Shown here one piece after another: positions 6,833-34,432 of a stretch of 64,000 bases of DNA (its first letter is position 1; each line of letters starts with the position of its first letter). The stretch is from Ahniella affigens (GTDB lineage: Bacteria; Pseudomonadota; Gammaproteobacteria; Xanthomonadales; Ahniellaceae). The notes below the pieces were generated by a model, which saw nothing but the letters and a program-made list of their open reading frames with translations, was not told the origin of the DNA and did not search any database. The translations under genes and the position numbers were made by a program. The stretch is from positions 62,001-126,000 of the forward strand of contig NZ_CP027861.1 of NCBI RefSeq assembly GCF_003015185.1, in the 5' to 3' direction.

Positions 6833-7999
6833 ATGAACGCCCAGAAAGGTTTCTCACTCGTCGCTTTCGCCTTGCTGCTCGGACTGGTCACGATCGCCGG
6901 CGTCGCCGGTGTGCAGTTGCAGTTGCGAGAGAGCAGAGCCAAATTGGCTCAATCTTGGATCGACGCACAAGCCCGGGAGCTCGAACAGATCGCTGTCGCC
7001 GTTCGTACCTGGACGTCGGCTCCGACCAATGTCGCCTCCTGGCCCAACGACACGCGCGTGGGCATCGCCTGTACCTCGCTGACATCGGCTGGCCTCCTTC
7101 CGGCCTCCTTTGGGCGGGATACGGTGCCATGCAAAGGCCCGTTCGGGACCACGTACACGATGATTGGCATCAAGAATGCCGCTGATACGACTGTTCCGGT
7201 GGGGCGAGTGCGAATCGTGATCTATCAGACCGGTCAACCAGGTGCTGGCTTGCTGAAGCGAGCGGGCATCACCAATGACACGGCCGGAATGACCGGAATC
7301 GCGATGCGCACAGCGCTTGCGCTTTCGGAGCGAAAGATCCCAGCTGGCTGGGTTGTTCCGGGCAACGCAACCGCCACCGGGGTCGGGCGCGCTTGGACCA
7401 AGCCCCTGGCAAACTGGATCACGCCAGCACCAACCTACGCCGGGGCAGTCGCGCTGGTGGGCTTTCCGGATCTGGGCGGCATCCTCGATACCACGGCCAG
7501 CAGCGCCGATCGGTGCACCGCGGGCGAGATTGTCCGCGGATTCTGTTCGGGCAACCCGCTGTGCCTGAACAATGGGCAAGGGTGGGTGCCGCCCGTATGT
7601 CCATCAGGCAAGAGCAAGGTTGGTGAGTTTCCTCACTGCAAGACCAATGATGTGTTTCAGTACAATTCGGGCCTGGGCTCGTCGTTGATTCTCGGTAACG
7701 TGACCTTCGATCTCGGGCAGGGGCGAGGGGATAGTGAGTGCGCGAGTTACGCCCGTCAGTTCGGCCTTGCCGGTTCAGAGGAATACACTACGGCACGAGA
7801 CGCCTGCAGAGCAGACCACTCCCGGCAATTCGAAACGACCATATACGTTGACGGTCCTCAGCCGAACAACTTTTGCGGAATTGAGATTCCGGGCTTTGCT
7901 CCGAATCCCGTGTACCCAGGCCAGCAAGTGCTCGCAACAAGCACTCAGCTTTGGGGATATCCGGCAGGAAAAGATATCGTGTGCGCGACTTGTAATTAA
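6833..7999 (+). CDS. Type IV prepilin-like secreted protein (PilV-like)
   Basis: The N-terminus MNAQKG|FSLVAFALLLG is a class III prepilin leader: a short basic peptide, a Gly at the cleavage site, a Phe as first mature residue, then a long hydrophobic helix. Unlike major pilins, position +5 is Ala instead of Glu, as in some minor or tip pseudopilins. The roughly 340-residue passenger is Gly/Thr-rich with several Cys in the C-terminal third (PPVCPSG, CKTNDV, CATCN). Length and layout suggest a tip adhesin resembling PilV of IncI1-type plasmids rather than a structural pilin. No peptidase or assembly ATPase is visible in the window. A 38-bp piece of this gene (7267-7304) recurs at 12132-12169. 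Confidence 0.7.
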   Translation: MNAQKGFSLVAFALLLGLVTIAGVAGVQLQLRESRAKLAQSWIDAQARELEQIAVAVRTWTSAPTNVASWPNDTRVGIACTSLTSAGLLPASFGRDTVPCKGPFGTTYTMIGIKNAADTTVPVGRVRIVIYQTGQPGAGLLKRAGITNDTAGMTGIAMRTALALSERKIPAGWVVPGNATATGVGRAWTKPLANWITPAPTYAGAVALVGFPDLGGILDTTASSADRCTAGEIVRGFCSGNPLCLNNGQGWVPPVCPSGKSKVGEFPHCKTNDVFQYNSGLGSSLILGNVTFDLGQGRGDSECASYARQFGLAGSEEYTTARDACRADHSRQFETTIYVDGPQPNNFCGIEIPGFAPNPVYPGQQVLATSTQLWGYPAGKDIVCATCN

Positions 8000-8013: not shown

Positions 8014-9093
8014 ATGAGAATTCTGTTGATGCTGGTTTTGATCATTGCTGCGTCGGAATCGCTCGCGCAGCAAACTTTGTTCCGGCAGTCCAGTCCAATC
8101 ATCCCAGTACTCCCGGAAAATGGGGGGTACTTCGATCCAACAAAGCCGGGCAACGGCATCATGGTCGAAGTAGCGGACGATGGCTTTGTTTTCGGAGCGT
8201 TCTTCTACTATGACGCCCTGGGAATCGGGAAGTGGAACACCGTTCAGGGGTTCTGCGTGCCGGTATCGGAGCAGGTGCGAATGACCACGGACGTGATCTG
8301 CAAAGTTACGCCCACGGCAATGTTTGAGGCCCGCGACGGTCAATGCTGGGGCTGCCCGTGGCGGCAGAACACGAACTTCGTCAGCACGGACATGAACACG
8401 AACGTGGAAGTCGTGTTCTTCGCGCCGAATCGAGGTGAACTGCGGGCGAACGGCGCGGTGCTGCCGTTGCGCAGACTGTCCGAGGTCTACCCGGGCCAGA
8501 CAGTGCGTGATCGCTTGCTTGGGCAGTGGGACCGGGTTCGATTCCGGAAGGCTCGGGACTGCACGGGATGTGCAGAGTACACGGTTGCTCAGAAGATCGG
8601 CGCTGTCGAAGTGCGGCCCATTACTGCACGAAAGAACTTTGTCAACGTGGCGCGGCCTGCTGGATTCGAGAATCCCACCATCGATTCTCTGCCCGTGTTT
8701 CCAGCGGACAACGTGCCCCAGTACGAGGTCGTTTGCATTGACAATGCCGGTGCGAACGGGGGCACTGGATCTTGCACGAACTTCACTGCCCAAACTGGCC
8801 AAGCCTCCGGATATGAGGTCTTCTACGAAGAGCAGTCGTCGGGTGCAATCCGAGAGGTTAGTTTGTGCCCGAGTCGTAGCTTGCCGGATTGTGAGATTGT
8901 CGATGGGCAGATCGGAGCTATTGTGATTCGCAATGCACTCGACTACAGGCGTGATGTCTATGTAAGCAAAGGGCGAATTGTCGTTCGCGGAACTACACAG
9001 GTGGCCGGCGAATTCGTGATCCAGGAAGAGGAGGTTTGGACCAAGCGTGATAGCACGCGGACTGTGCCGATTGCGACTGCCTGGCCGTTTTGA
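8014..9093 (+). CDS. Secreted protein of unknown function, downstream of prepilin gene
   Basis: A signal peptide is clear (MRILLMLVLIIAASESLAQ, cleavage after residue 19). The mature 340 residues include GGYFDPTKPGNGIMVEV followed by an aromatic stretch. This resembles a motif of the type 'WWNPxESGxGxxIxxQ' that I recall from extracellular proteins of Lysobacter-type bacteria. Cys-containing segments (CWGCPW, CTGC) suggest disulfides. The gene starts 14 bp after the prepilin-like gene stops, with GGGA upstream, so the two are probably cotranscribed and may work together at the cell surface. The function is unknown. Confidence 0.7.
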   Translation: MRILLMLVLIIAASESLAQQTLFRQSSPIIPVLPENGGYFDPTKPGNGIMVEVADDGFVFGAFFYYDALGIGKWNTVQGFCVPVSEQVRMTTDVICKVTPTAMFEARDGQCWGCPWRQNTNFVSTDMNTNVEVVFFAPNRGELRANGAVLPLRRLSEVYPGQTVRDRLLGQWDRVRFRKARDCTGCAEYTVAQKIGAVEVRPITARKNFVNVARPAGFENPTIDSLPVFPADNVPQYEVVCIDNAGANGGTGSCTNFTAQTGQASGYEVFYEEQSSGAIREVSLCPSRSLPDCEIVDGQIGAIVIRNALDYRRDVYVSKGRIVVRGTTQVAGEFVIQEEEVWTKRDSTRTVPIATAWPF

Positions 9094-9120
9094 CCGGCTG
9101 GCATCATTGGGGGTGAGATC

Positions 9121-9250
9121 GGAGTCTCACCCTGACCCCACAGCAACCCGATCCGTTCGGGTCTTGCGGGGTCGGCTCTGGCGCTGCCGCCTGTCGGCTT
9201 TTGCGCCTGAGCCTGCGACGGTGGGTTCACGGTTCGCCGAGGTCGACAGT
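9121..9250 (-). repeat. Palindromic repeat copy 1 (tnpB 3' end, with conserved tail)
   Basis: The core palindrome (9134-9173) is bordered by GGAGTCTCACCCTGACCCC. Inward of it, 9174-9250 is shared with copy 5 and partly with copy 7. It covers the 3' end of tnpB, where the guide RNA scaffold of such elements normally lies. Confidence 0.7.
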
Positions 9251-10551
9251 CCGGCCGGCCCTGTTCTGCCGACTGCTGCCGCGGCCTCTCCCCGCGCGTC
9301 ACTTTCCCCGCTCCTCGGGGTAGCCGGCGACGACGCTGCGATCAGCCGCAGCGCCTCGGTCCGGAGGTTTCTGGCCGCGTTTTCGTCGCGGTCGTGTTCG
9401 GTGCCACAGGCCGGACAGGCCCAGCGGCGTTCCTTCAGTTTCAGGGCGGCGTGAATGGCACCACACGCGCCACAGGTCTTGCTGCTCGGGTAGAACCGAT
9501 TCACCGCGACCAGCGTGCGGCCGCGCCACCCGGCTTTGTAGGTGAGCTGCCGGCGCAGTTCACCGAGTGCAGCGTCGGCGACCGAGCGACGAAAGGCCTT
9601 GCGGCCCATGCCCCGGCTCATCGCCTTCACCGCCAGATCCTCGATGCCGATAACCTGCGCCTCGCGCACGACGGCAGCACTGGCCTGGTGCAGGGCGTCT
9701 CGGCGCAGATCGGCCACCTGCGCGTGCAACCGCCCAATCTGCTGCTGCGTCTTGCGACGGCGATTCGAACTGCCGAGCCGTACACCCTTGGGGCAAGGCT
9801 TCGTGGGATCGAGGCCTTGGGCACGCATCTGCGCAGCGATCTGGCGGCTCTGCTGCCGCTGGTAGCGGCGCAGTCTGGCCTGCTTGCTGGCCAGCGCCTT
9901 GGGTGCCGGAACGCGGCGAGTGCCGTGACCATCGGCGATGACGAGGAGATCCCTCAGTCCGGCATCCAGACCGACGGCATCCAATTCGGGTACATGAATT
10001 GCCGGCCGCGAAATGCCATCAGCGGTGATGGCACCGTGCCATCGCCCGGCACTGTCCCGCGACAGCGTGATACTGCGCAGCCGGCCGTTGAGCGCTTCGG
10101 TGCGGCGTAGCTTCAGACTGCCAAGGCTAGGCAGATCGACGGTCGCCCATCGGCCACCGGTGTCTCGTACCTGCTGGCGGCGCTGATCGAAGGTAAACCG
10201 CATGGATGCGCGTCCACCGCGGCGTTCGAAGCGCGGATAGGCCGCGCGCTTCGCGAAGAAGTTGGCAAACGCCCGCTCCTGATCGCGCAGCACTTGGTTG
10301 AATGGCTCCCGTGGCAAGGTCGCGAGCCAGGGACGCTCCGGGTCGCGCCGGTATTCAGTGAACTCGCGCGAAAGGGAGACCCAGTTCAGGCGCTCGCCCC
10401 GCTCGCGGTACGCGCTGGTTCGCTTGGCCAGCGACCAGTTCCACACGTGCCGCGATGCGCCAACGAGTTGCGCGAGCAAGCGCGCCTGGTCGCGAGTCGG
10501 GTAGACCCGCATGCGGTACGCGCGGGAAAGGGTGGCCAATGCTTCCGTCAT
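9127..10551 (-). CDS. tnpB: TnpB family RNA-guided endonuclease (IS200/IS605-type accessory protein)
   Basis: TnpB proteins are RuvC-fold nucleases guided by an RNA made from the transposon end. The N-terminal AYRMRVYPTRDQARLLAQL block, the central RuvC aspartate in GLDAGLRDLL, the glutamate in VIGIEDLAVK, the four-Cys zinc ribbon (CGACG...CPACG) and the final aspartate in HDRDENAARN are all present, so the catalytic set looks intact. The start at 10551 (MTEALATLSRAYRM) was chosen because residues further upstream are encoded by the terminal repeat. The stop codon lies inside the left repeat, and the last ~15 residues (SRPRKTRTDRVAVGSG) are repeat-encoded. This makes a 475-residue protein with a longer tail than usual. 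No tnpA is adjacent. Confidence 0.9.
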   Translation of the reverse strand: MTEALATLSRAYRMRVYPTRDQARLLAQLVGASRHVWNWSLAKRTSAYRERGERLNWVSLSREFTEYRRDPERPWLATLPREPFNQVLRDQERAFANFFAKRAAYPRFERRGGRASMRFTFDQRRQQVRDTGGRWATVDLPSLGSLKLRRTEALNGRLRSITLSRDSAGRWHGAITADGISRPAIHVPELDAVGLDAGLRDLLVIADGHGTRRVPAPKALASKQARLRRYQRQQSRQIAAQMRAQGLDPTKPCPKGVRLGSSNRRRKTQQQIGRLHAQVADLRRDALHQASAAVVREAQVIGIEDLAVKAMSRGMGRKAFRRSVADAALGELRRQLTYKAGWRGRTLVAVNRFYPSSKTCGACGAIHAALKLKERRWACPACGTEHDRDENAARNLRTEALRLIAASSPATPRSGESDARGEAAAAVGRTGPAGLSTSANREPTVAGSGAKADRRQRQSRPRKTRTDRVAVGSG

Positions 10552-10633
10552 GCCGGAAGCATGAACCTCATCCGTCGCACCGGGTGAGACAGGGCACCAG
10601 CAAGCCGCCGGCCGTCCGGCTTGTCCGCCTGAG

Positions 10634-10690
10634 TCGGCCCCGCAAGACCCGAACGGATCGGGTTGCTGTGGGGTCCGGATGAGACTCCGA
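10634..10690 (+). repeat. Palindromic repeat copy 2 (tnpB 5' end)
   Basis: Inverted relative to copy 1: reads GGCCCCGCAAGACCCGAACG and ends GGATGAGACTCCGA. It lacks the conserved tail of copy 1. Confidence 0.7.
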
Positions 10691-10775
10691 AAAGGTAAAA
10701 CCAATGCAGGAGTTCAGCGGGTCATTACAGAACCTCGGTTTAGGCGCTTGCTCAGACGGGAATATCGGCGGTCGC

Positions 10776-10900
10776 GTGTATTTTACACAATACCTGTTTC
10801 CAACGATTTAAACCCCTATATTCAAGGTAATGTAGTCACTACAAGTGTCGAGATTGGCGTCATTGTGTGGGCAATGATACCATTGAGGTGTAATTTACAC
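10776..10900 (+). promoter_or_regulatory. Cluster of three 13-bp operator-like palindromes upstream of AAA ATPase
   Basis: Within an AT-rich 125-bp stretch lie GTGTATTTTACAC (10776-10788), TGTAGTCACTACA (10831-10843) and GTGTAATTTACAC (10888-10900). The first and third share GTGTA-N3-TACAC. They end 23 bp before the ATPase start and suggest repressor control; the regulator is not identified. The AT-richness contrasts with the surrounding GC-rich DNA. Confidence 0.55.
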
Positions 10901-10922
10901 TTGCCGGCGCAGGAGGAGTTTA

Positions 10923-12071
10923 ATGATGTCTGAGCGAGCCTATTTCCCCCGCCGGGAACTCGCCGAAAGCATTGCCAAACAGTTGCTCAGCCCGAGCCTT
11001 CTTGGCGGAGCCGCACCTGGCCTCTTTCTGGCAGCCCCTCGGCGCAAAGGCAAGTCCACTTTCCTACGCCGAGACCTGAGCCCCGCTCTCGAACAGGAAG
11101 GAACTTTGGTTCTGTACGTCGACTTGTGGGCAAACCTGGACACATCGCCAGCCGAGCTGATCGCTGGCGTCATTGCGCGGGCGCTCGCCAAACACCAGAG
11201 TACTCTTGCAAAGTTGGCGAATGCCTCCGGAATCTCGAAGGTGAAGATTCAAAACGTCGAGTTCACCATCGATCGAATCGGGAAGACCGCTGGCGCCACG
11301 TTGTCTGATGCGTTACAGGAGCTACATAGCCTGGCACGCAAGCCAATCGTCTTCATCATCGATGAAGCGCAGCATGTCGTCACAGCCGACAAGAACATGA
11401 CCGTAATGGCGGCACTGAAGGCCGCCCGCGACGCCCTCAACAGCACTGGTGACAACCTCTATTTAGTGATGTCAGGTTCTGACCGAGACAAACTACTTCG
11501 ACTGGTTCATGGCACTGGGGCACCCTTCTTCGGCGCAACCATCCACACTTTGCCGGATTTGGGCAAGGACTATGTCGCATACGCAGCGGGCGCTGTGGTG
11601 CGCGTACATCCTGCTCTCGAGATCGACAATGCTCGCTTGGCGGCGATTTTCGACCGATACGAGCATCGTCCTGAATTCTTCGAGCAAGACATCGGGGCTG
11701 CAATATCGCCCCTGGCAGGATCGCCCGAGGGATTCATAGAACGACTGGAGCGACTGGCGACGGAACGTGAACTGGTTCGCGACGCCGTCTATGCGGCCAC
11801 CTTCGATGATCTCTCATCCCTTCAGAAGGCGATCGTCGCCGAACTGGCCGTACCGCGAGCCGGTGCCCCCAGGCTATTCACCAAAGAGGCTTTGGCACGT
11901 TATTCGCAAGCTACCAAGAAGAAGATCCAAGCGGGGCAGGCGCGCAGCGCTGTTGAACAGCTCCGCGATCGTGACCCGCCTTTGATCTGGAAATCTGACC
12001 GAGGCGACTACGCTTTCGAAGATACCGGGTTCTCGCGATGGTTCCAGACTACATTTGGAAACTCACCCTAA
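10923..12071 (+). CDS. AAA/STAND-type P-loop ATPase, unknown role
   Basis: A 382-residue P-loop NTPase. Walker A is APRRKGKST (about residues 39-47) and Walker B is VFIIDEAQHV (about 141-150). A sensor-like LVMSGSDRDKL follows, and the C-terminal ~100 residues look like a winged helix ending in EDTGFSRWFQ. This layout resembles single-protein ATPases of the archaeal-type (PF01637-like) and Orc/Cdc6-like AAA groups often found on mobile elements. The substrate is unknown. AGGAGG at 10911-10916 supports the start at 10923 (a second ATG follows at once). The AT-rich upstream region with three palindromes suggests its own regulated promoter. Confidence 0.8.
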   Translation: MMSERAYFPRRELAESIAKQLLSPSLLGGAAPGLFLAAPRRKGKSTFLRRDLSPALEQEGTLVLYVDLWANLDTSPAELIAGVIARALAKHQSTLAKLANASGISKVKIQNVEFTIDRIGKTAGATLSDALQELHSLARKPIVFIIDEAQHVVTADKNMTVMAALKAARDALNSTGDNLYLVMSGSDRDKLLRLVHGTGAPFFGATIHTLPDLGKDYVAYAAGAVVRVHPALEIDNARLAAIFDRYEHRPEFFEQDIGAAISPLAGSPEGFIERLERLATERELVRDAVYAATFDDLSSLQKAIVAELAVPRAGAPRLFTKEALARYSQATKKKIQAGQARSAVEQLRDRDPPLIWKSDRGDYAFEDTGFSRWFQTTFGNSP

Positions 12072-12080
12072 CCACGCTAC

Positions 12081-12120
12081 GACCCTATCCGTTCGGGTCT
12101 TGCGGGGTCAGGGTGAGACT
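12081..12120 (+). repeat. Palindromic repeat copy 3 (left-truncated)
   Basis: Starts at GACCCTATCCGTTCGGGTC and ends GGGTGAGACT. The left half of the palindrome is shortened. It lies 9 bp after the ATPase stop codon and may act as its terminator hairpin. Confidence 0.65.
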
Positions 12121-12131
12121 GCGAGAGCTGG

Positions 12132-12169
12132 AATCACCAATGACACCGCCTGAATGACCGGGATCGCGA
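12132..12169 (+). pseudogene. 38-bp fragment matching the prepilin-like gene
   Basis: AATCACCAATGACACCGCCT and the following 18 bases match 7267-7304 of the prepilin-like gene at 34 of 38 positions. It would encode ITNDTA-stop-MTGIA. It is apparently the relic of a second, lost pilV-like gene or of a partial duplication. Confidence 0.5.
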
Positions 12170-12194
12170 CAGCCGCAAGGCAGCAGGGCCGGAG

Positions 12195-12242
12195 CCGACC
12201 TTGCGAGACCCGGACAGATCAGGTCGCTGCGTGGCCAGGGTG
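12195..12242 (+). repeat. Palindromic repeat copy 4 (degenerate)
   Basis: CCGACCTTGCGAGACCCGG followed by AGATCAGGTCGCTGCGTGG aligns with copies 2 and 5 with several substitutions, so it is an older, decayed copy in the same orientation. Confidence 0.5.
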
Positions 12243-12271
12243 GGGCACGGAAGTCAACCAGAGAGTAGCCC

Positions 12272-12604
12272 ATGAAGCACGACGAGACAGTCAACATATT
12301 GAGCGAGTGGCCGGCAGAGATTTTGGACGCCTTAGTCGCAATGCTGGAGGACAGCGGGATCGTTACGGATGAGGACCGCACCGGGTTATCATCAGTGATG
12401 ATCAAGGGCTGGGAGTCCCGGTGCGATGCCGTTCTTGTGGGGCGCGGGTACTCAGGTGGGCCTCTCGCAAAGATGGGAAAGTACTACCCTTGGGCAGGGG
12501 CGATCTATTGTGTCTACGACTCGACTCGAATGTCGCCGGATGATGCCCTCGAACATCTGGACCAGGCCAGCAAGAAGCACCCTGACTGGCTCGCGGAACC
12601 GTGA
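12272..12604 (+). CDS. Hypothetical 110-residue protein between palindrome copies
   Basis: Unrecognised small acidic protein (MKHDETVNILSEW...). It includes a possible globular core around YSGGPLAKMGKYYPWAGAIYCVYD. Its last codons and stop (GAACCGTGA) fall inside repeat copy 5, so the C-terminus is formed by the repeat. The Shine-Dalgarno is weak. With degenerate repeat copies on its left and copy 5 on its right, it may be cargo of a palindrome-bounded cassette. Coding status is moderately supported by frame length and composition only. Confidence 0.5.
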   Translation: MKHDETVNILSEWPAEILDALVAMLEDSGIVTDEDRTGLSSVMIKGWESRCDAVLVGRGYSGGPLAKMGKYYPWAGAIYCVYDSTRMSPDDALEHLDQASKKHPDWLAEP

Positions 12605-12712
12605 ACGCACCGTCGCAGGCTCAGTAGCAAGGCCCCGAAGGCATCAGCGCGTAAGCCGACCCCGCAAGACCCGAACGGTTCGGGTTGCTGTGGGGTCAGG
12701 GTGAGACTCCGA
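12601..12712 (+). repeat. Palindromic repeat copy 5 with conserved tail
   Basis: The tail (12601-12655, GTGAACGCACCGTCGCAGG...) and palindrome (12658-12712) match the reverse complement of copy 1 plus its tail almost throughout. This is a stand-alone copy of the tnpB 3' end. Confidence 0.7.
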
Positions 12713-12752
12713 GATGACGCAGACTATGCTTCTTATTAGGGGAATGAAAACG

Positions 12753-13862
12753 ATGAGAACAGGGACTATCAATCGAGCAGAACTTGTGGAACTGGTCGAG
12801 ACCTGCGCAATCCGAAGTGCCCGTGTTGTTCGGGTTCAAGAGGGCTGGGTGGCAATGGTTTACGATGGGCATCAAGAGTATGTTTTGACTGCAGCTCAGT
12901 CTCGACAACCCAAGGTGTTCAAAGGATTCGCTACGGCAATCAACCTTCTGCAGCGTATCGGCGTCGCGCGAGCGGAGGTTGATGCTGGCCATAGCGACGA
13001 ACGGGATCGACACGCAATCGATCTTGCCCAATTCGCGGAGCATGATGCGTGGTTCCGCGCCGAGGTCAGGCAGGCACTTGAGGAAGCAGAAGAAGCGAAT
13101 CCCAGGTGGATCAACCACACAACAGTGCGCTCAGATGGCGAACGTCGACAAGGGGAGTGGTGCGAGACGGCCTTAGGCCTGGTCGGTGAAAGGGACGGCA
13201 CGATTCAAATCCAGTACATCGCTGACGCGATCATGCGCCGCGTTCAGCACTTCAAGGATGCAACGAGTGAAGATGAGTCAGGTCGTTTGACGGAACGCGC
13301 AATTAGAATCGATTTGTTCAAGTATGGAGCGGGCCCGGATGATGTGCTGAAGGTGTGCGGAAGCCTGCTACTTGACCTTGCCGAGATGTCCGCCGATCGC
13401 TCCTTGGTTCCCACTGCACTGGCGCTACAACGGATAGCAGTGGCGTACCGGGCGGAGCAAGACGAACTCGAGGAAACACGGCACCTAGTCGATGCAGAGC
13501 ACTTCGCGTACGCGCAACAAGTCAGGAAGCTATGCATCGACTTCTTCTACAAATCGACGCCGCCCAACGTGCGCGTAGACATGTCTGCGCACAGGGAAGC
13601 GGTGGCGGCAGCACGCGATGCTGGTGGTGATCCAAAAATCCTCGATGCTCTGGATCGATACTTGGATGAGAAAAAAGCACTGGCCAAAATCTATCTTTCG
13701 GTTCGAGAACATTTTGGAATCAATCACTACTACGCTACAGCTGCCAGCCTCCCAACCACCAAGGAGATAGCGAGCGCCGCCGAGACGGCCCTCGCTGATG
13801 TCATGGATCGTGCTGGATCCTTTGTGCCCGTCCGAATTGCGCTAGCTCTGAAGAGAACCTGA
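12753..13862 (+). CDS. Putative antitoxin/partition-type N-terminal domain fused to unknown C-terminal domain
   Basis: The first ~120 residues (RSARVVRVQEGWVAMVYDG..., HDAWFRAEVRQALEEAEEANPRWINH) resemble mobile-element proteins annotated as plasmid stabilization or antitoxin. In those, a ~100-residue globular part precedes an 'HDAWFR-x-VQ-ALEEAD-xP' C-terminal helix. Here the protein does not stop there but continues for ~235 residues of helical, unrecognised sequence. That would be a fusion or a divergent long variant. The start at 12753 is preferred because AGGGGAA lies about 10 bp upstream; in-frame starts at 12714 and 12744 are alternatives. The antitoxin reading is inference from recalled motifs. 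Confidence 0.6.
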   Translation: MRTGTINRAELVELVETCAIRSARVVRVQEGWVAMVYDGHQEYVLTAAQSRQPKVFKGFATAINLLQRIGVARAEVDAGHSDERDRHAIDLAQFAEHDAWFRAEVRQALEEAEEANPRWINHTTVRSDGERRQGEWCETALGLVGERDGTIQIQYIADAIMRRVQHFKDATSEDESGRLTERAIRIDLFKYGAGPDDVLKVCGSLLLDLAEMSADRSLVPTALALQRIAVAYRAEQDELEETRHLVDAEHFAYAQQVRKLCIDFFYKSTPPNVRVDMSAHREAVAAARDAGGDPKILDALDRYLDEKKALAKIYLSVREHFGINHYYATAASLPTTKEIASAAETALADVMDRAGSFVPVRIALALKRT

Positions 13863-13891
13863 GCTTTTCAGGTCGTTTGTCCTCTTCAGAG
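13846..13891. terminator. Nested stem-loop between convergent genes
   Basis: CTCTGAAGAG (13846-13855) pairs with CTCTTCAGAG (13882-13891), and inside it ACCTGA pairs with TCAGGT (13856-13861 and 13868-13873). It overlaps the stop codon at 13860-13862 and lies between converging genes, so it may terminate both. Confidence 0.55.
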
Positions 13892-14000
13892 AACTGGGGT
13901 ATGCCGTCGTGAGGGCGCGATGCCTTGGTACGCTGGGGTTCGGACATCTGCTGCACTCGGAGGGCATGGCCGTTGGATGAGACCTTCTAGGGGACCGCCA

Positions 14001-15794
14001 TCACGAGTCTACGCGATAGATGTGTCCTGCAGGCTCGGGTGCATTGGATCCTGCGTCGCGATGCACCAGGAGCGGCATGAGCCAGATAAGTTTTCGCAGA
14101 GAACGTTGCTCACCATAGGCCTGCCTTCGCCAGTGGCCACGCCGCCAGTGTGGTCGCACGTTTCGCTCGCCCGCATCCGTGGCAGGAGAGGATGAGGCGA
14201 CGTCGGCTAGGCGCTTGCCACAGAGATGAACGCGTGTATATCCCATTGACTCCAGCTGAGAGGCTGCTTTGGTTTGTTGCTTCGGGGTGCCGGAGCGGAG
14301 CTTCGCCATCAGCGCGGGTGGCGTGCCTTCTGGCCAGGCCGTTTCCACGTCATCGGGATAGGCGGTGAGATAGCACATGGCACTGGCCGCGAGGTGCATC
14401 GCTCTCGCAACAACGGGGCGTCGCGCGTGCACTTCATCCGTCTCGCGGGATGCACGTGCTTCAGTCGAAACAAAGATGTGGGCAGGAAGTTCCAGTTCAT
14501 CCTTGATCTGATCGATCTCAAATTGCATTTCAGGAGCCCGCTCGCGTTCCTCGCTGAGCGAGTTCAATTTCTCGGCGGTGACAGCATCGATGGCAGTGCC
14601 CAGGTCCAATCCGGCGTGATCAGGTTCGAGCGTGATCGACACGCCTGGTTCGCCGTACCCGTGCCACAGATTTGCGTGCTCAGGAGTGGCCGGAATCGTG
14701 GTGAAACGGAATATCATCAATTTGTGCTCTGGATGGTGTTCGACGTAAACCCCATCGATGACCGCACCATCACCCAAAGCAAGATCGTGCTGTGCACCGA
14801 AGTGGAGGAAGACGATCGGATAGGGCAACCGAAGCAGATCGACGGGAATATCGCTGGCGTCGGTTTTCGTCAACATGTCGCACAGGTGCTGAGGGAACTC
14901 GAAGATCTGACGGCCGGCGTTTTGAAAGTTCACCCATGCGGTCGCAAGCGTCAGCTCGTCGTTGAGGATGCGCATGCCAGAACTGTTGTGGCGCCATGTC
15001 TCTCGTCGATCAACCTCATTGAGTCTCTCGTTATGCTCCTGAACGATGAAGCCAAAAAACGTGTTCGCCGTTGCCTCAGTCAAAAGGGTAGGTCGCGTGT
15101 GAATGCTACGGAGTTGCCGCGCGTAGTGTCGGGTCTGACGAAAGCGTTCCGGGTGGTAACGGAAGAGCGGGCAGGGCCGCCAGGTTGCAGGAAAATCATT
15201 GTCGCAGAGCGCTGCTTGGTATGGGGGCAACGATGCCAACACCAAAAACGTCGGACTGACGCCACGAAAGAAATTCCGTGCCCACGTGGTGTATGCGCCT
15301 GGAGATGATTCAAAGAGCACGCGCAACAAGACTGGGGCGTCCGGCGCCGCACCGGAGATGCTGATGCACATGACGCATGGGGGTGCCGCAAAGGCGCCCG
15401 TCTCGGCGTAGAACGATGCCAAGTCTGCAGCCGCGTCACGAAGCCAATCAACAACTTCGTTGGGAAGCTTCGCACGAACGGTATCCCTGAAGATCTGAAG
15501 TGGTGCGTCCATCGGTCGGACGCTGCCCAGATGGTGGAAGGTTTCAGGTTGCAGCAAAAGCCTCAGTACCGCACCAATGCGCTGGAGGTCTCGAGGTCGG
15601 CGATCAGCGCGACGCGCAAGGTTGGTTAGCGCCTGTTCGTCCTCACCGATCAGAGCCAACGTGTTGGCGATGAGCTGTAAGTATTTGAGCGGCTGATCGT
15701 CATTTCCACGCGAATGTTCCAACTTGGCCAAGCCGTCGATCAGATCGAACAGAACTTCATCGAGTGGTATTGCGCTACGGTCATGATTGGTCAA
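14001..15794 (-). CDS. Large protein with AcrVA2-like C-terminal domain
   Basis: Product of 597 residues. The last ~60 residues contain NVRPHWRRGHWRRQAYG followed by IWLMPLLV. This matches a pattern (PH-x-RRGHW-x5-G...W-x-P-x-V) that I recall from the C-terminus of the anti-CRISPR AcrVA2 and from many plasmid and phage proteins of unknown role. The upstream ~530 residues are unrecognised, so the protein is much longer than AcrVA2 (about 320 residues). The start is TTG at 15794 with GGAAGGAAA upstream; the nearby ATG is out of frame. It is third in a minus-strand operon after an HTH gene (46 bp gap). Function is unknown; AcrVA2 relatedness is motif-based inference. Confidence 0.65.
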   Translation of the reverse strand: MTNHDRSAIPLDEVLFDLIDGLAKLEHSRGNDDQPLKYLQLIANTLALIGEDEQALTNLARRADRRPRDLQRIGAVLRLLLQPETFHHLGSVRPMDAPLQIFRDTVRAKLPNEVVDWLRDAAADLASFYAETGAFAAPPCVMCISISGAAPDAPVLLRVLFESSPGAYTTWARNFFRGVSPTFLVLASLPPYQAALCDNDFPATWRPCPLFRYHPERFRQTRHYARQLRSIHTRPTLLTEATANTFFGFIVQEHNERLNEVDRRETWRHNSSGMRILNDELTLATAWVNFQNAGRQIFEFPQHLCDMLTKTDASDIPVDLLRLPYPIVFLHFGAQHDLALGDGAVIDGVYVEHHPEHKLMIFRFTTIPATPEHANLWHGYGEPGVSITLEPDHAGLDLGTAIDAVTAEKLNSLSEERERAPEMQFEIDQIKDELELPAHIFVSTEARASRETDEVHARRPVVARAMHLAASAMCYLTAYPDDVETAWPEGTPPALMAKLRSGTPKQQTKAASQLESMGYTRVHLCGKRLADVASSSPATDAGERNVRPHWRRGHWRRQAYGEQRSLRKLIWLMPLLVHRDAGSNAPEPAGHIYRVDS

Positions 15795-15840
15795 GATGAA
15801 GTTTCCTTCCTCTGTGATCGGATGTTGTCCGCCAGTCAGG

Positions 15841-16242
15841 TCATTCTGATCCGCGAATCGTCACGGCGATGCCGCGTGCCTCAAGTGCTTCGCGACAGCG
15901 GTCGATTAAGGCATTGTGGACCGCGTTGCCGCCGGGGAAATCGGGATGGACGCGGGCGAGCGCCTGGTCGTCACGATAGCGCACCAGCTCGACGGCTTGA
16001 GGCGCCCCGCGCGTAGCCGCTTGGGCGTTCACGACGCGCGTGGCTTCACGGACACGCTGTTCTACGAAGGCATCGAGCGCGAGTAGGGCTGAGATCGCGT
16101 CAGCCGGGAGGGATACATCACCAGATTCCCAGCGTCGTACGGTGCGATCGGTGACGACATTGCGCAAGCCAGGGATGCGGCCGAGGGCTTGGGCGGTCAG
16201 GCCGAGGCGCGCGCGCAGCGTCTTGAAATGCTCGGGAGTCAA
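15841..16242 (-). CDS. XRE-type helix-turn-helix regulator
   Basis: About 133 residues. The N-terminal MTPEHFKTLRARLGLTAQALGRI...DRTVRRWESGDVSLP is a Cro/C1-type HTH (residues ~3-55). The C-terminal ~80 residues carry VELVRYRDDQALARVHPDFPGGNAVHNALI, a pattern seen in some mobile-element regulators. The start is taken as TTG at 16242: its TTGA overlaps the stop TGA of the preceding gene, implying translational coupling. An in-frame start at 16329 is the alternative. Likely an autoregulator of this three-gene operon, comparable to Aca-type regulators in acr operons, but that comparison is inference. Confidence 0.75.
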   Translation of the reverse strand: MTPEHFKTLRARLGLTAQALGRIPGLRNVVTDRTVRRWESGDVSLPADAISALLALDAFVEQRVREATRVVNAQAATRGAPQAVELVRYRDDQALARVHPDFPGGNAVHNALIDRCREALEARGIAVTIRGSE

Positions 16243-16523
16243 CGCAGCGGACCGAAGGATGGTGGGCTGGGGCCGGTCTCGGTCCAGGCGATGGTTATGC
16301 CGCGGCCTTGGTAGGCCATCACGCGACACGGGCGGGAATGCAGATCGAACCGCTTGTCAGTACGGAGGATCCTGCGCGCCTCGGAGGCGCGTTGCCCCTT
16401 AACGGCGGGGTGCGAGGGCACCTGGGCGTAGGCGCGCCGGGCTACCGAGATCCAGAGCGCAGCTTTGCGGCCAGGGCAGCAGCCGGACTCGGCGTGTCGT
16501 TTGGCGTTCGTGTCTGGAACCAT
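16239..16523 (-). CDS. Small hypothetical protein, first gene of HTH/AcrVA2-like operon
   Basis: About 94 residues starting MVPDTNAKRHAE. It is basic, with a C-terminal ARRILRTDKRFDL...CRVMAYQGRGITIAWTE that has a beta-rich, structured look. Its TGA overlaps the TTG start of the HTH gene (TTGA at 16239-16242), which supports it being real and cotranslated. An in-frame start 60 bp upstream is possible. No family is recognised with certainty. Confidence 0.6.
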   Translation of the reverse strand: MVPDTNAKRHAESGCCPGRKAALWISVARRAYAQVPSHPAVKGQRASEARRILRTDKRFDLHSRPCRVMAYQGRGITIAWTETGPSPPSFGPLR

Positions 16524-16653
16524 GGATATCACTTTTTGTGAGCGGCGGGCCCGACACCCTGAGGATGTCCCAATATAGGACATGGGCCCGGTGTTGCCTA
16601 GTTTGGAGAGACCCTCGCAAAAGTGGATTAGCGGGTGAACTTGTGCTCATCAA

Positions 16654-16719
16654 AGTCTCACCCTGACCCCGCAAAACCCGATCCGTTCGGATTGCTTTGG
16701 GGTCTGGGTGAGACTCCGA
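16654..16719 (+). repeat. Palindromic repeat copy 6 (complete, tail-less)
   Basis: The most symmetrical copy: AGTCTCACCCTGACCCC on the left and GGGGTCTGGGTGAGACT on the right around ACCCGATCCGTTCGGAT. It has no tnpB-type tail. It lies between the divergent operon start (16523) and the gene at 16786, so it may influence transcription of both. Confidence 0.7.
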
Positions 16720-16785
16720 GTATGCTTAGCAGGCGATAAATGAGGGTTGCTCAATTGAGGCGCGGATTGTTGACGGAAGGGTTCA

Positions 16786-17331
16786 ATGGCAGGCATTGAA
16801 TGGGGAGTCGATCTAAGCCATTTGGCGCCGGCGTGCCACGTCTATGAGCTGAAGTTGCAGGACGGGATCGTGCATCTGCCGTTTCGGGTTCGTTACTCAC
16901 CCCACTGCTGGACGCGAACGAAGTCGGCGACGGACAGTGACGATCAGTTCGTTTGGCACGAGCGACGCAGTGATGGCCAAGTGGAGGCGCGAGTGATTTG
17001 CCCGATCAGGTATTCGTTCTCTGCGCAGCTGCCTGGGATTGTCGCGTCATTGCAAAATGCGTCGGTTTATCGCGGTCGTGGGGAAGTGTTCTACCGAACC
17101 AAGGACACTGATCGACAACGCGGACTCTGGGCCGTGTGTCTCAAGTTTGACGTAAATGTGGGTGCGAAGGAGTTGCGATTGACCTGTAAGAGCGCGCATC
17201 ACCGGCACAACCTTCCCCACGACGCCAAACAGCCCGCAGACCGTTTTTTCCGAGTACTGAGAACTTTCTATTTGAGTCATGCTGAACGGCACGACTGGAT
17301 ACCTCGGCCTACAAAGGAAAAGGGCCCCTGA
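16786..17331 (+). CDS. Hypothetical protein
   Basis: Unrecognised protein of 181 residues, basic and Arg/His-rich in its second half (RLTCKSAHHRHNLPH). No membrane segment or signal is seen. GAAGGG about 7 bp upstream supports the ATG at 16786. The stop codon is embedded in the following stem-loop. It lies immediately before a strongly structured non-coding segment. Confidence 0.55.
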   Translation: MAGIEWGVDLSHLAPACHVYELKLQDGIVHLPFRVRYSPHCWTRTKSATDSDDQFVWHERRSDGQVEARVICPIRYSFSAQLPGIVASLQNASVYRGRGEVFYRTKDTDRQRGLWAVCLKFDVNVGAKELRLTCKSAHHRHNLPHDAKQPADRFFRVLRTFYLSHAERHDWIPRPTKEKGP

Positions 17332-17348
17332 CTGGTCAGGAGCCCTTT
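17319..17348. terminator. Bidirectional terminator-like stem-loop
   Basis: AAAGGGC/GCCCTTT (17319-17325 and 17342-17348) encloses CCTGA/TCAGG (17327-17331 and 17336-17340). It has an A-run before and T-run after the stem, so it could work on either strand. It contains the stop of the 181-residue gene. Confidence 0.7.
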
Positions 17349-17355
17349 GAAGAAA

Positions 17356-17500
17356 GGCTGGAGCCCTTGGGTATCCCTGCCCGTGGCGGGGACCATCTTT
17401 CGATGGCGGCATGGGCGCAACCCTTTTGGGGACTCCAGCTGACGCGCTCCACGTGCCAAGAATAGGACAGAGTTGCGCTGAGCGCAACAGGCTTTTTGAC
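17356..17500 (+). ncRNA. Candidate structured non-coding RNA
   Basis: A closing stem GCTGGAG/CTCCAGC (17357-17363 and 17433-17439) encloses at least two local hairpins: GCC-CGT-GGC flanked by TCCC/GGGA (17374-17392) and CCATC-TTTC-GATGG (17393-17406). A terminator follows at about 17473-17498 (GTTGCGCT-G-AGCGCAAC then GGCTTTTT). The whole looks like a multibranched RNA of about 145 nt rather than a coding region. The opposite strand would read into the stem-loop at 17319-17348, so the transcribed strand is uncertain. No known RNA family was recognised. Confidence 0.45.
17473..17498 (+). terminator. Rho-independent terminator
   Basis: Perfect 8-bp stem GTTGCGCT/AGCGCAAC with a 1-nt centre (effective loop 3 nt or more), followed by AGGCTTTTTG. 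No coding sequence precedes it closely, supporting a non-coding transcript upstream. Confidence 0.7.
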
Positions 17501-33428: not shown

Positions 33429-33629
33429 CCCCTCGTTCAAGCACGCAAGCGTGGGCGGCCGCTGCTGGGACGAAACACGACCAGAACCTGAACAGCCTGT
33501 CGGACCGCAGAGCCATTCGGAGGATTTCGGACCGCTTGGCTCGAATGCTTCGTCTGCATAGGCTGTCTTTCAGTGGCGATCTTCGGGAGTTGGGCAGAAA
33601 AGTGACTGCGCCAGAAGAGTCAAAGTCTC

Positions 33630-33716
33630 GGAGTCTCGCCCGGACCCCACGGCGACCCGATCCGTTCGGGTCTTGCGGGGTCGGCTCGTGCGCTGCAGCC
33701 TGATAGCTTTCGCGCC
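33630..33716 (-). repeat. Palindromic repeat copy 7 with tail
   Basis: GGAGTCTCGCCCGGACCCC leads into ACCCGATCCGTTCGGGTC and GGGGTC, followed by a tail (33683-33716) partly matching the inner tail of copy 1. Same orientation as the left end of the tnpB element. Confidence 0.65.
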
Positions 33717-33729
33717 GGCGGGGTCTTCG

Positions 33730-33969
33730 TCATCCGTGACTCATTCGAAGCGACTGCGTTGACTCTGCGCTGAGTCTGTATTTCGAGATCAGCTCGCTGG
33801 CCTGTTGCAGGGCCTGCCTGGCGGTCGACGCACGAGTGCCGGCGATCAACATGCCCGCCCAGTAGCCGACAAGCGCGTCGTGGGTTGGGATACCCTCGGG
33901 GATGGGGACAAGAACAAGATCACAGTCAGGTGCGTCCAATATATGTGGGGAAACCCATCCGTCACACAT
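33730..33969 (-). CDS. Possible small hypothetical protein
   Basis: A 79-residue frame (MCDGWVSPHILDAPDCDLVLVPIPEGIPTHDALVGYWAGM...) with a plausible alpha/beta start and helical end. It lies between palindrome copies 7 and 8. No ribosome binding site is evident, and an opposite-strand frame of 140 codons also spans it. Possibly a fragment of a larger lost gene. Confidence 0.3.
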   Translation of the reverse strand: MCDGWVSPHILDAPDCDLVLVPIPEGIPTHDALVGYWAGMLIAGTRASTARQALQQASELISKYRLSAESTQSLRMSHG

Positions 33970-34170: not shown

Positions 34171-34264
34171 AAGTGCGCATTCGGCGGGTTCGTAAAGCTA
34201 CAGAGAGTTGGCCAAGCCCTCGTTTGAACATGCTTTGCATGCTGGCGACAAAATTAGCGGGTTG

Positions 34265-34318
34265 CCGACCGGGCAAGTCCCGAATCGGTTGTGTTGCTGC
34301 GCGGTCAGGGTGAGACTG
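34265..34318 (+). repeat. Palindromic repeat copy 8 (degenerate)
   Basis: CCGACCGGGCAAGTCCCGAAT through GGTCAGGGTGAGACT aligns with copies 2 and 5 with many substitutions. Inverted relative to copy 7, so the pair 7/8 bounds a ~690-bp segment as copies 1/2 bound tnpB. Confidence 0.5.
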
Positions 34319-34432
34319 CCTGTATTTCAGTACTTTTCCAACGCCTTCGGGTGATCGAAGCGGTTAGGACGCGATATTTGTCCATTTCTGGTTGTACTGT
34401 ATTGATTCGATTGCGGCCCCAGCAAGGAGAGG

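What the first reader, a model, noticed from the sequence alone, without database searches (positions are those of the whole stretch)
9121..10690. tnpB-only element with long palindromic inverted ends
A catalytically intact RuvC TnpB lies between inverted copies of a ~55-bp palindrome, and translation stops inside the repeat. IS200/IS605-type elements usually have subterminal hairpins, not long inverted repeats. The element may be trapped or mobilised by an unknown transposase that recognises the palindrome. The 3' end (9121-9250) is the expected site of a guide RNA scaffold, with the adjacent outside sequence as guide.
Basis: partly seen in the sequence, partly recalled or inferred. Interest (0 to 1): 0.75.

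Follow-up and report, generated by a model that had tools for sequence, protein, structure and literature searches.

The report
Plasmid TnpB element missing left end
This is an RNA-guided DNA-cutting enzyme gene from an ordinary family of jumping genes, with its guide-RNA end intact and its other end lost; the striking mirror-image repeats are copies of that guide-RNA end, not the ends of a new kind of transposon.

Summary
In detail: an intact tnpB gene (window 9127-10551, minus strand) lies between inverted arms of 80 nt, 85% complementary. They are not a pair of transposon ends. The copy at 9119-9241 is the right end (RE) of a tnpB-only, IS200/IS605-type element. The copy at 10626-10690 is a second RE fragment facing the other way, sitting where the true left end (LE) should be. 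Of 9 other tnpB sites with 500 nt upstream (the second copy on this 149-kb plasmid, and MAG copies, some broken), 0 have the inverted RE and 7 have a different, shared LE. The plasmid has ten RE-like places, two of them the 3' end of a tnpB. Others include a 117-bp LE+RE element, two full palindromes and one complete 123-nt scaffold; they resemble known PATEs. None was found on the chromosome. No convincing guide target was found; one flank has a 45-bp, 89% match to a nearby gene. Verdict: truncated member of a known kind. Whether the stand-alone copies guide TnpB in trans stays open.

The parts
9127..10551 (-). tnpB-1, intact RNA-guided endonuclease gene (ATG start; frame open to TTG at 10704)
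   Evidence: ORF; Pfam; NCBIfam guided_TnpB; alignment to TnpB of 8bf8/8exa; dN 0.053, dS 0.299 against copy 2 over the first 410 codons
9119..9241 (-). RE of the element = predicted omegaRNA scaffold: hairpin 1, hairpin 2 (the palindrome, about 9134-9173) and a 15-nt 3' tail ending at 9119
   Evidence: End shared with copy 2 and stand-alone copies; same terminus in six relatives examined; folds
9099..9118 (-). predicted guide segment (flanking DNA); first 8 nt complement the end of the scaffold
   Evidence: Flank differs at each of 8 copies compared; inference from ISDra2 anatomy, PMC8612924 passages
10552..10621 (-). 5' part of the element still shared with copy 2; the outer 93 bp with the LE are missing
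   Evidence: Homology to C2:16016 ends at 10621; LE motif of copy 2 starts at C2:16109, none upstream of tnpB-1
10626..10690 (+). second, oppositely facing RE fragment: the 'inverted end' of the finding
   Evidence: 65 bp, 92% to the RE of copy 1; model R1 hit 82.8 bits (this copy is in the model)
12055..12124 (+). stand-alone palindrome (RE-like on both arms, divergent)
12125..12169 (+). 45-bp fragment, 89% identical to window 7260-7304 (gene 6833-7999), lying between two RE copies
12165..12251 (+). stand-alone degenerate RE
   Evidence: 78% over 78 bp; R1 83.9 bits (in the model)
12590..12712 (+). stand-alone RE with complete 123-nt scaffold, no tnpB, no LE found
   Evidence: 86% over 123 bp; R1 100.6 bits (in the model)
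16652..16719 (+). stand-alone palindrome (predicted 62-nt hairpin)
33628..33744 (-). 117-bp LE+RE element without tnpB (PATE-like)
   Evidence: RE 88% over 89 bp; LE 97% over 35 bp
34250..34321 (+). stand-alone degenerate RE
   Evidence: R1 52.2 bits (in the model)

Best explanation
A left-end-truncated, tnpB-only element of the IS200/IS605 superfamily (IS1341-like layout) on a 149-kb plasmid with F-type transfer genes. Shown by sequence: the palindrome at 9119-9241 is the element's RE, whose outer boundary is fixed at 9119 by copy 2 and fits the relatives; the mirror copy at 10626-10690 is another RE fragment lying where the LE should be. Inferred: the RE is transcribed as omegaRNA through the end of tnpB. 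TnpB-1 would then use about 16-20 nt of flanking DNA (from 9118 down) as guide and cleave plasmid copies that lack the insertion. Without its LE the element is probably no longer movable by a Y1 TnpA. The other RE copies are non-autonomous, PATE-like derivatives or debris of the same family.
For: Copy 2 (C2:14514-16109) has the same RE, a different LE and no inverted RE. Six relatives examined, from three MAGs (the five top rows and L060 of the 80 loci), have GG[TG]TGAGA[CT]TCCGA at the matching place, followed by unrelated flanks. The LE motif is shared by copy 2, the 117-bp element and 7 sites in two of the three MAGs; a divergent one, seen by eye, is in L160. Homology of copies 1 and 2 stops at 10621, next to the inverted RE. 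Between copies, dN/dS is about 0.18 over 410 codons; in the last 65 codons dS falls from 0.30 to 0.17 and dN rises to 0.15, as expected if RNA rather than protein is constrained there (few codons). A gene-drive role for TnpB in plasmids has been reported (preprint PMC11870625, abstract and passages).
Against: No transcript or cleavage data. No empty site was found, so the border between target motif and LE is inferred. In G102 (L048) and at L175 no LE motif was found. Covariation is weak: 1 of 18 pairs in A2 and 1 of 21 in A3 show a two-sided change. Rfam has no relevant match in 8500-17500. The end of the scaffold can pair with the first 8 guide nt at copy 1, which might disturb the guide.
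Confidence: 0.86

Rival explanations
1. The two inverted palindromes are true terminal inverted repeats of an element moved by an unknown transposase.
For: Arms of 80 nt, 85% complementary, flank tnpB-1.
Against: Copy 2 and 8 further sites with 500 nt upstream have no inverted RE. Single RE copies occur elsewhere on the plasmid. The LE of the family is a different sequence. tnpB-1 lacks 93 bp that copy 2 keeps.
Confidence: 0.05
2. The dispersed palindromes are REP-like repeats moved by chromosomal RAYT-type Y1 proteins, and tnpB merely lies among them.
For: Y1 proteins exist on the chromosome (3 places); two copies are palindromes on both arms.
Against: No convincing RE-like copy on the 5.97-Mb chromosome (best E 0.12 and 4.2; only 150 of 1455 candidates scored). 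The repeat continues into tnpB or tnpB-derived sequence at copies 1, 2 and 12590-12712. The same 3' terminus abuts tnpB in six relatives examined. In the loci of the three Y1 genes, no LE motif and only one 14-mer with 2 mismatches to the RE end.
Confidence: 0.06
3. The stand-alone copies are working omegaRNAs that guide TnpB-1 or TnpB-2 in trans to several sites, for example against competing plasmids.
For: 12590-12712 and 33628-33744 keep the palindrome hairpin and the exact 3' terminus, with different guides; both TnpB copies are intact.
Against: No convincing guide target. Of 8 flanks compared with the plasmid, one guide matched (45 bp, 89%), without a fitting motif before it. Four guides against the chromosome and 5 as exact 18-mers in viral contigs gave none better than chance. 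Several copies are degenerate.
Confidence: 0.12

Closest known systems
IS200/IS605 superfamily, tnpB-only (IS1341-type) elements; ISDra2 TnpB-omegaRNA
   Same: TnpB with aligned RuvC residues, omegaRNA region overlapping the 3' end of tnpB, RE hairpin near the end, flank as guide (predicted here)
   Different: No Y1 tnpA on this plasmid, LE lost in copy 1, target motif inferred as WYGN or WYGG rather than TTGAT
PATEs, palindrome-associated transposable elements (Haloquadratum walsbyi, PMC3119063; Halanaerobium hydrogeniformans, PMC7290912; passages read)
   Same: Short tnpB-less elements made of the ends of IS605-type elements, some carrying the 3' end of tnpB
   Different: Described there in a haloarchaeon and a haloalkaliphilic bacterium; here on a plasmid that also holds two intact tnpB copies. 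Mobility is not shown here
[quoted passage not shown]
   Same: TnpB element on a plasmid, guide made of plasmid flank
   Different: There TnpA/TnpB elements were tested; here the element is truncated and extra RE copies are present
RAYT/REP systems (recalled)
   Same: Dispersed palindromes; Y1 genes present in the genome
   Different: Palindromes found only on the plasmid and joined to tnpB

Membership tests
TnpB (OMEGA) RNA-guided endonuclease | TnpB domain set with RuvC D-E-D residues and zinc ribbon | tested here: met
TnpB (OMEGA) RNA-guided endonuclease | RNA scaffold from the 3' end of tnpB/RE with flank-derived guide | tested here: inconclusive
   Conserved terminus, hairpins and variable flanks; weak covariation; no RNA data
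TnpB (OMEGA) RNA-guided endonuclease | RNA-guided cleavage with a target-adjacent motif | not testable with these tools
   Indirect only: WYGG lies before the LE at 8 of 8 MAG sites inspected (7 by motif, L160 by eye); YGG background 4 of 154. Noticed after the fact; no assay
IS200/IS605 element | Distinct LE and RE with subterminal hairpins, no long terminal inverted repeats | tested here: met
   Met for copy 2 and MAG copies as to distinct LE and RE and the RE hairpin; a hairpin in the LE was not tested; copy 1 itself has lost its LE
IS200/IS605 element | Y1 TnpA in the element (absent in IS1341-type) | tested here: not met
   No Y1_Tnp match on C2; three on C1, unlinked. So filed as tnpB-only, IS1341-like
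IS607 element | Serine recombinase TnpA; IS607-type TnpB | tested here: inconclusive
   IS200_TnpB profile scores 272.8 bits against 221.3 for IS607_TnpB, both below their cut-offs; serine TnpA was not searched for
PATE | Short transposase-free element with palindromes like those of IS605-type ends | tested here: met
   33628-33744: LE+RE, 117 bp; L160 in a MAG looks similar
PATE | Shown mobile by strain-specific insertions | not tested
   No close relative of this stretch was found for comparison

The most novel reading that the evidence does not exclude
The plasmid uses its two intact TnpB proteins with a set of stand-alone, PATE-borne omegaRNAs as a multi-guide system: each short element programs the shared nuclease in trans against its own empty site. 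Tiny elements without any gene, and the plasmid carrying them, would then be driven against rival plasmids. TnpB-1, having lost its LE, would be kept as an immobile nuclease for this role.
Probability: 0.1. Interest if true: 0.72.

Novelty: new member of a known kind. Interest (0 to 1): 0.3.

Why it matters
It removes a false lead (a new palindrome-recognising transposase) and gives likely element ends for a proteobacterial TnpB family: the predicted omegaRNA terminus TGAGACTCCGA and the LE. It also leaves a testable point. A plasmid with transfer genes has two intact TnpBs and several scaffold copies with different guides, so whether tnpB-less elements are protected by guides in trans can be asked directly.

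Tried and rejected
Integron-like cassette array: considered because RE copies follow small genes in one orientation (10923-12071, 12272-12604). Rejected because the repeats end like the tnpB RE and the 117-bp copy has the element's LE. No attC test was run.

CRISPR-like repeat-spacer-repeat at 12055-12251, with a 45-bp spacer 89% identical to a gene 5 kb away. Rejected as the main reading: only one case, no fitting motif before the match (AAGC, where the family has WYGN), and the second repeat is degenerate. A rearrangement junction is more likely.

Guide targets. Eight 150-bp flanks (copies 1 and 2 and six other RE copies; the flanks after 12251 and at C2:34044 were not examined) were compared with C2. 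One match covers a guide (12125-12169). Weaker hits, the best at E 0.005, lie further out in the flanks. Against the chromosome: 4 guides; copy 1 gave one 20-mer with 3 mismatches, searches gave hits at E 0.6 or worse, none. Against plasmids: 3; two hits at E 0.3 and 0.9 for copy 1. Against phages: 1; three records at E 0.3 to 1. In viral contigs as exact 18-mers: 5, none. Empty sites through neighbouring genes in plasmids: the product of 12714-13862 has only partial matches under 60% identity in 88 records, not examined further; the product of 8014-9093 has none.

TnpB at E up to 1e-30 was found in 1 of 101 genomes searched, the own one. No DNA match to the element in plasmids. Of the 80 loci, only L047-L051 and L060 were examined for their ends; 74 were not. 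Rfam over 8500-17500: only an unrelated sub-threshold match. The host was not identified.

Literature. Stand-alone TnpB omegaRNAs were looked for in seven searches, read as listings. No listed title or abstract start reports trans-guiding by PATE-borne RNAs; this is not proof that none exists. Passages of PMC8730458 did not treat it, and in PMC12558985 six search terms had no occurrence. Trans-acting omegaRNAs for IscB are recalled (Altae-Tran et al. 2021), not read here.

Full report
Setting. The window is G000:C2:62001-126000. C2 is a 149,386-bp contig beside a chromosome of about 5.97 Mb. The window carries TraH, TraG_N, KfrA_N and DnaB-like genes, so C2 is taken to be a plasmid with F-type transfer genes.

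Observation. Arms 9119-9198 and 10611-10690 are inverted, 80 nt, 85% complementary. The 34-nt core occurs four times in the window at up to 3 mismatches, with 0 expected in 100 shuffles. The TnpB frame ends at 9127 inside the repeat. TnpB passes Pfam cut-offs for three domains and the NCBIfam guided_TnpB cut-off. Residues 10-408 align with TnpB of 8bf8/8exa (ISDra2, as named for 8EXA), E = 3.8e-57, with D, E and D in register at the RuvC motifs.

What the palindrome is. A second tnpB (88% protein; 89% DNA) lies at C2:14514-16016. Both copies end at the same base...TGAGACTCCGA, after which the flanks differ. Six relatives were examined out of the 80 loci kept: its five top rows and L060, from three MAGs, 52-59% identical over the best segment. 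L051 is cut by a contig end, and L060 is a partial copy with a stop. All six have GG[TG]TGAGA[CT]TCCGA at the corresponding point and unrelated flanks after it. This is the anatomy of the RE and omegaRNA 3' end described for ISDra2, where the RNA covers the end of tnpB plus RE and its last 16 or so nt come from the flank (PMC8612924, passages). In copy 1 the boundary is 9119 and the guide would run from 9118 downwards. The palindrome is the last scaffold hairpin. Covariation is weak, with one two-sided pair in each alignment, so the structure rests mainly on folding and on the relatives' similar hairpins. Between copies 1 and 2, dN is 0.053 and dS 0.299 over 410 codons, against 0.147 and 0.170 over the last 65. 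That fits protein constraint first and RNA constraint at the tail, but the tail is short.

What the other arm is. Copy 2 has its LE start 93 bp beyond the point (10621 in copy 1, C2:16016) where the two copies stop matching. The LE motif, ATGAGTCAGGGACGACGAAGACCCCGCCGGC with up to 7 substitutions, occurs before copy 2, at the outer end of the 117-bp element 33628-33744, and at 7 sites in two of the three MAGs. A divergent one in L160 was seen by eye. One search looked upstream of 14 rows. Nine are distinct tnpB sites other than copy 1 with 500 nt upstream; several of the MAG ones are broken or partial tnpB copies. Of these 9, 0 have an inverted RE (14-base motif, up to 2 substitutions) and 7 have the LE motif; L048 and L175 show neither. 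The other five rows are copy 1 itself, L049 and L148 (under 200 nt upstream; L148 has the LE), and L145 and L153, which repeat L047 and L050. Only copy 1 has an inverted RE, and it has no LE. So the mirror arm is a second RE fragment in the LE's place. How the junction arose (deletion, recombination or insertion next door) is not known.

The family on the plasmid. Model R1, built from eight of these copies, finds ten places on C2 at E up to 0.02, counting the two palindromes once each. Two are the REs of the tnpB copies. One is the mirror arm. One is LE+RE of 117 bp. One (12590-12712) has the full 123-nt scaffold and no LE. Two (12055-12124 and 16652-16719) are palindromes on both arms. Three are degenerate (12165-12251, 34250-34321, C2:34044-34125). 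On the chromosome BLAST gave nothing below E 0.1 and R1 nothing below 1, though only 150 of 1455 candidates were scored. Transposase-free elements with IS605-like ends are known as PATEs, including forms shortened to the fused ends and forms with the 3' end of tnpB (PMC3119063 passages; PMC7290912 passages). In the three MAGs, 17 omegaRNA-like places were found, the six model sequences among them. Thirteen have tnpB sequence in the fetched locus, L160 does not and has an LE-like start, and three (L151, L154, L155) lie at contig ends and cannot be judged.

Likely working. With RE and TnpB intact, TnpB-1 should still form its RNP and cut a plasmid copy that has the guide sequence next to the right motif without the insertion. 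Gene drive of this kind in plasmids has been reported for IS200/IS605 elements (preprint PMC11870625, abstract and passages). The motif is inferred after the fact: WYGG lies directly before the LE at 8 of 8 MAG sites inspected, and YGG occurs at 4 of 154 positions in the 25 nt upstream of the seven motif-found sites. On the plasmid it is ATGC and TCGA (2 sites). No empty site confirms this. Mobility of copy 1 is unlikely: LE lost, no Y1 match on C2, three unlinked Y1 genes on C1, in whose loci no LE motif and only one 14-mer with 2 mismatches to the RE end was found.

Family assignment. The RNA region overlaps the tnpB reading frame, as in IS200/IS605; for RAGATH-18-type IS607 TnpBs it is reported as separate (PMC11061315 passages). 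The IS200_TnpB profile scores above the IS607 one, 272.8 and 221.3 bits, both under their strict cut-offs. So IS200/IS605-type, tnpB-only is most likely, but IS607 kinship is not excluded, the more so as the inferred motif contains GG and the IS607 motifs in that paper do too. Serine recombinases were not searched for.

Stand-alone copies as guides. This is the open, more novel reading. For it: two well-kept stand-alone copies with different guides, and two intact TnpBs. Against it: no convincing targets. The one plasmid match, 45 bp at 89% to gene 6833-7999, has AAGC before it and lies between two RE copies, so it looks like a rearranged fragment. Searches against chromosome, plasmids, phages and viral contigs, each with only part of the guides, gave nothing beyond chance.

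Verdict. A real, correctly seen repeat; an intact TnpB; the guide-RNA guess well supported by anatomy; the new-transposase idea not supported. New member of a known kind.

Noticed in passing
window 9111-9132: The first 8 guide nt of copy 1 (TCTCACCC) complement the scaffold end GGGTGAGA, making a second hairpin across the element border. Copy 2 lacks it. Chance or selected is unknown.
   Followed up: partly
window 12055-12251: Palindrome, then a 45-bp 89% copy of gene 6833-7999, then a degenerate RE: a repeat-fragment-repeat arrangement.
   Followed up: partly
window 12590-12714: A stand-alone scaffold overlaps the end of ORF 12272-12604 and ends at 12712, one base before the first ATG of ORF 12714-13862 (weak ParC-like hit, below cut-off), so the guide would cover that ATG if it is the real start.
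   Followed up: no
window 10923-12071: AAA ATPase gene (PF13401 above cut-off) between two RE copies; no PADLOC match.
   Followed up: no
window 17312-17376: Sub-threshold Rfam match to BjrC68, 27.4 bits against a gathering score of 39.
   Followed up: no
G103 (L146, L149, L151, L152, L154-L161): One Rhodanobacter MAG holds 12 omegaRNA-like places and 15 tnpB matches of this family, most of them partial, some cut by contig ends.
   Followed up: partly
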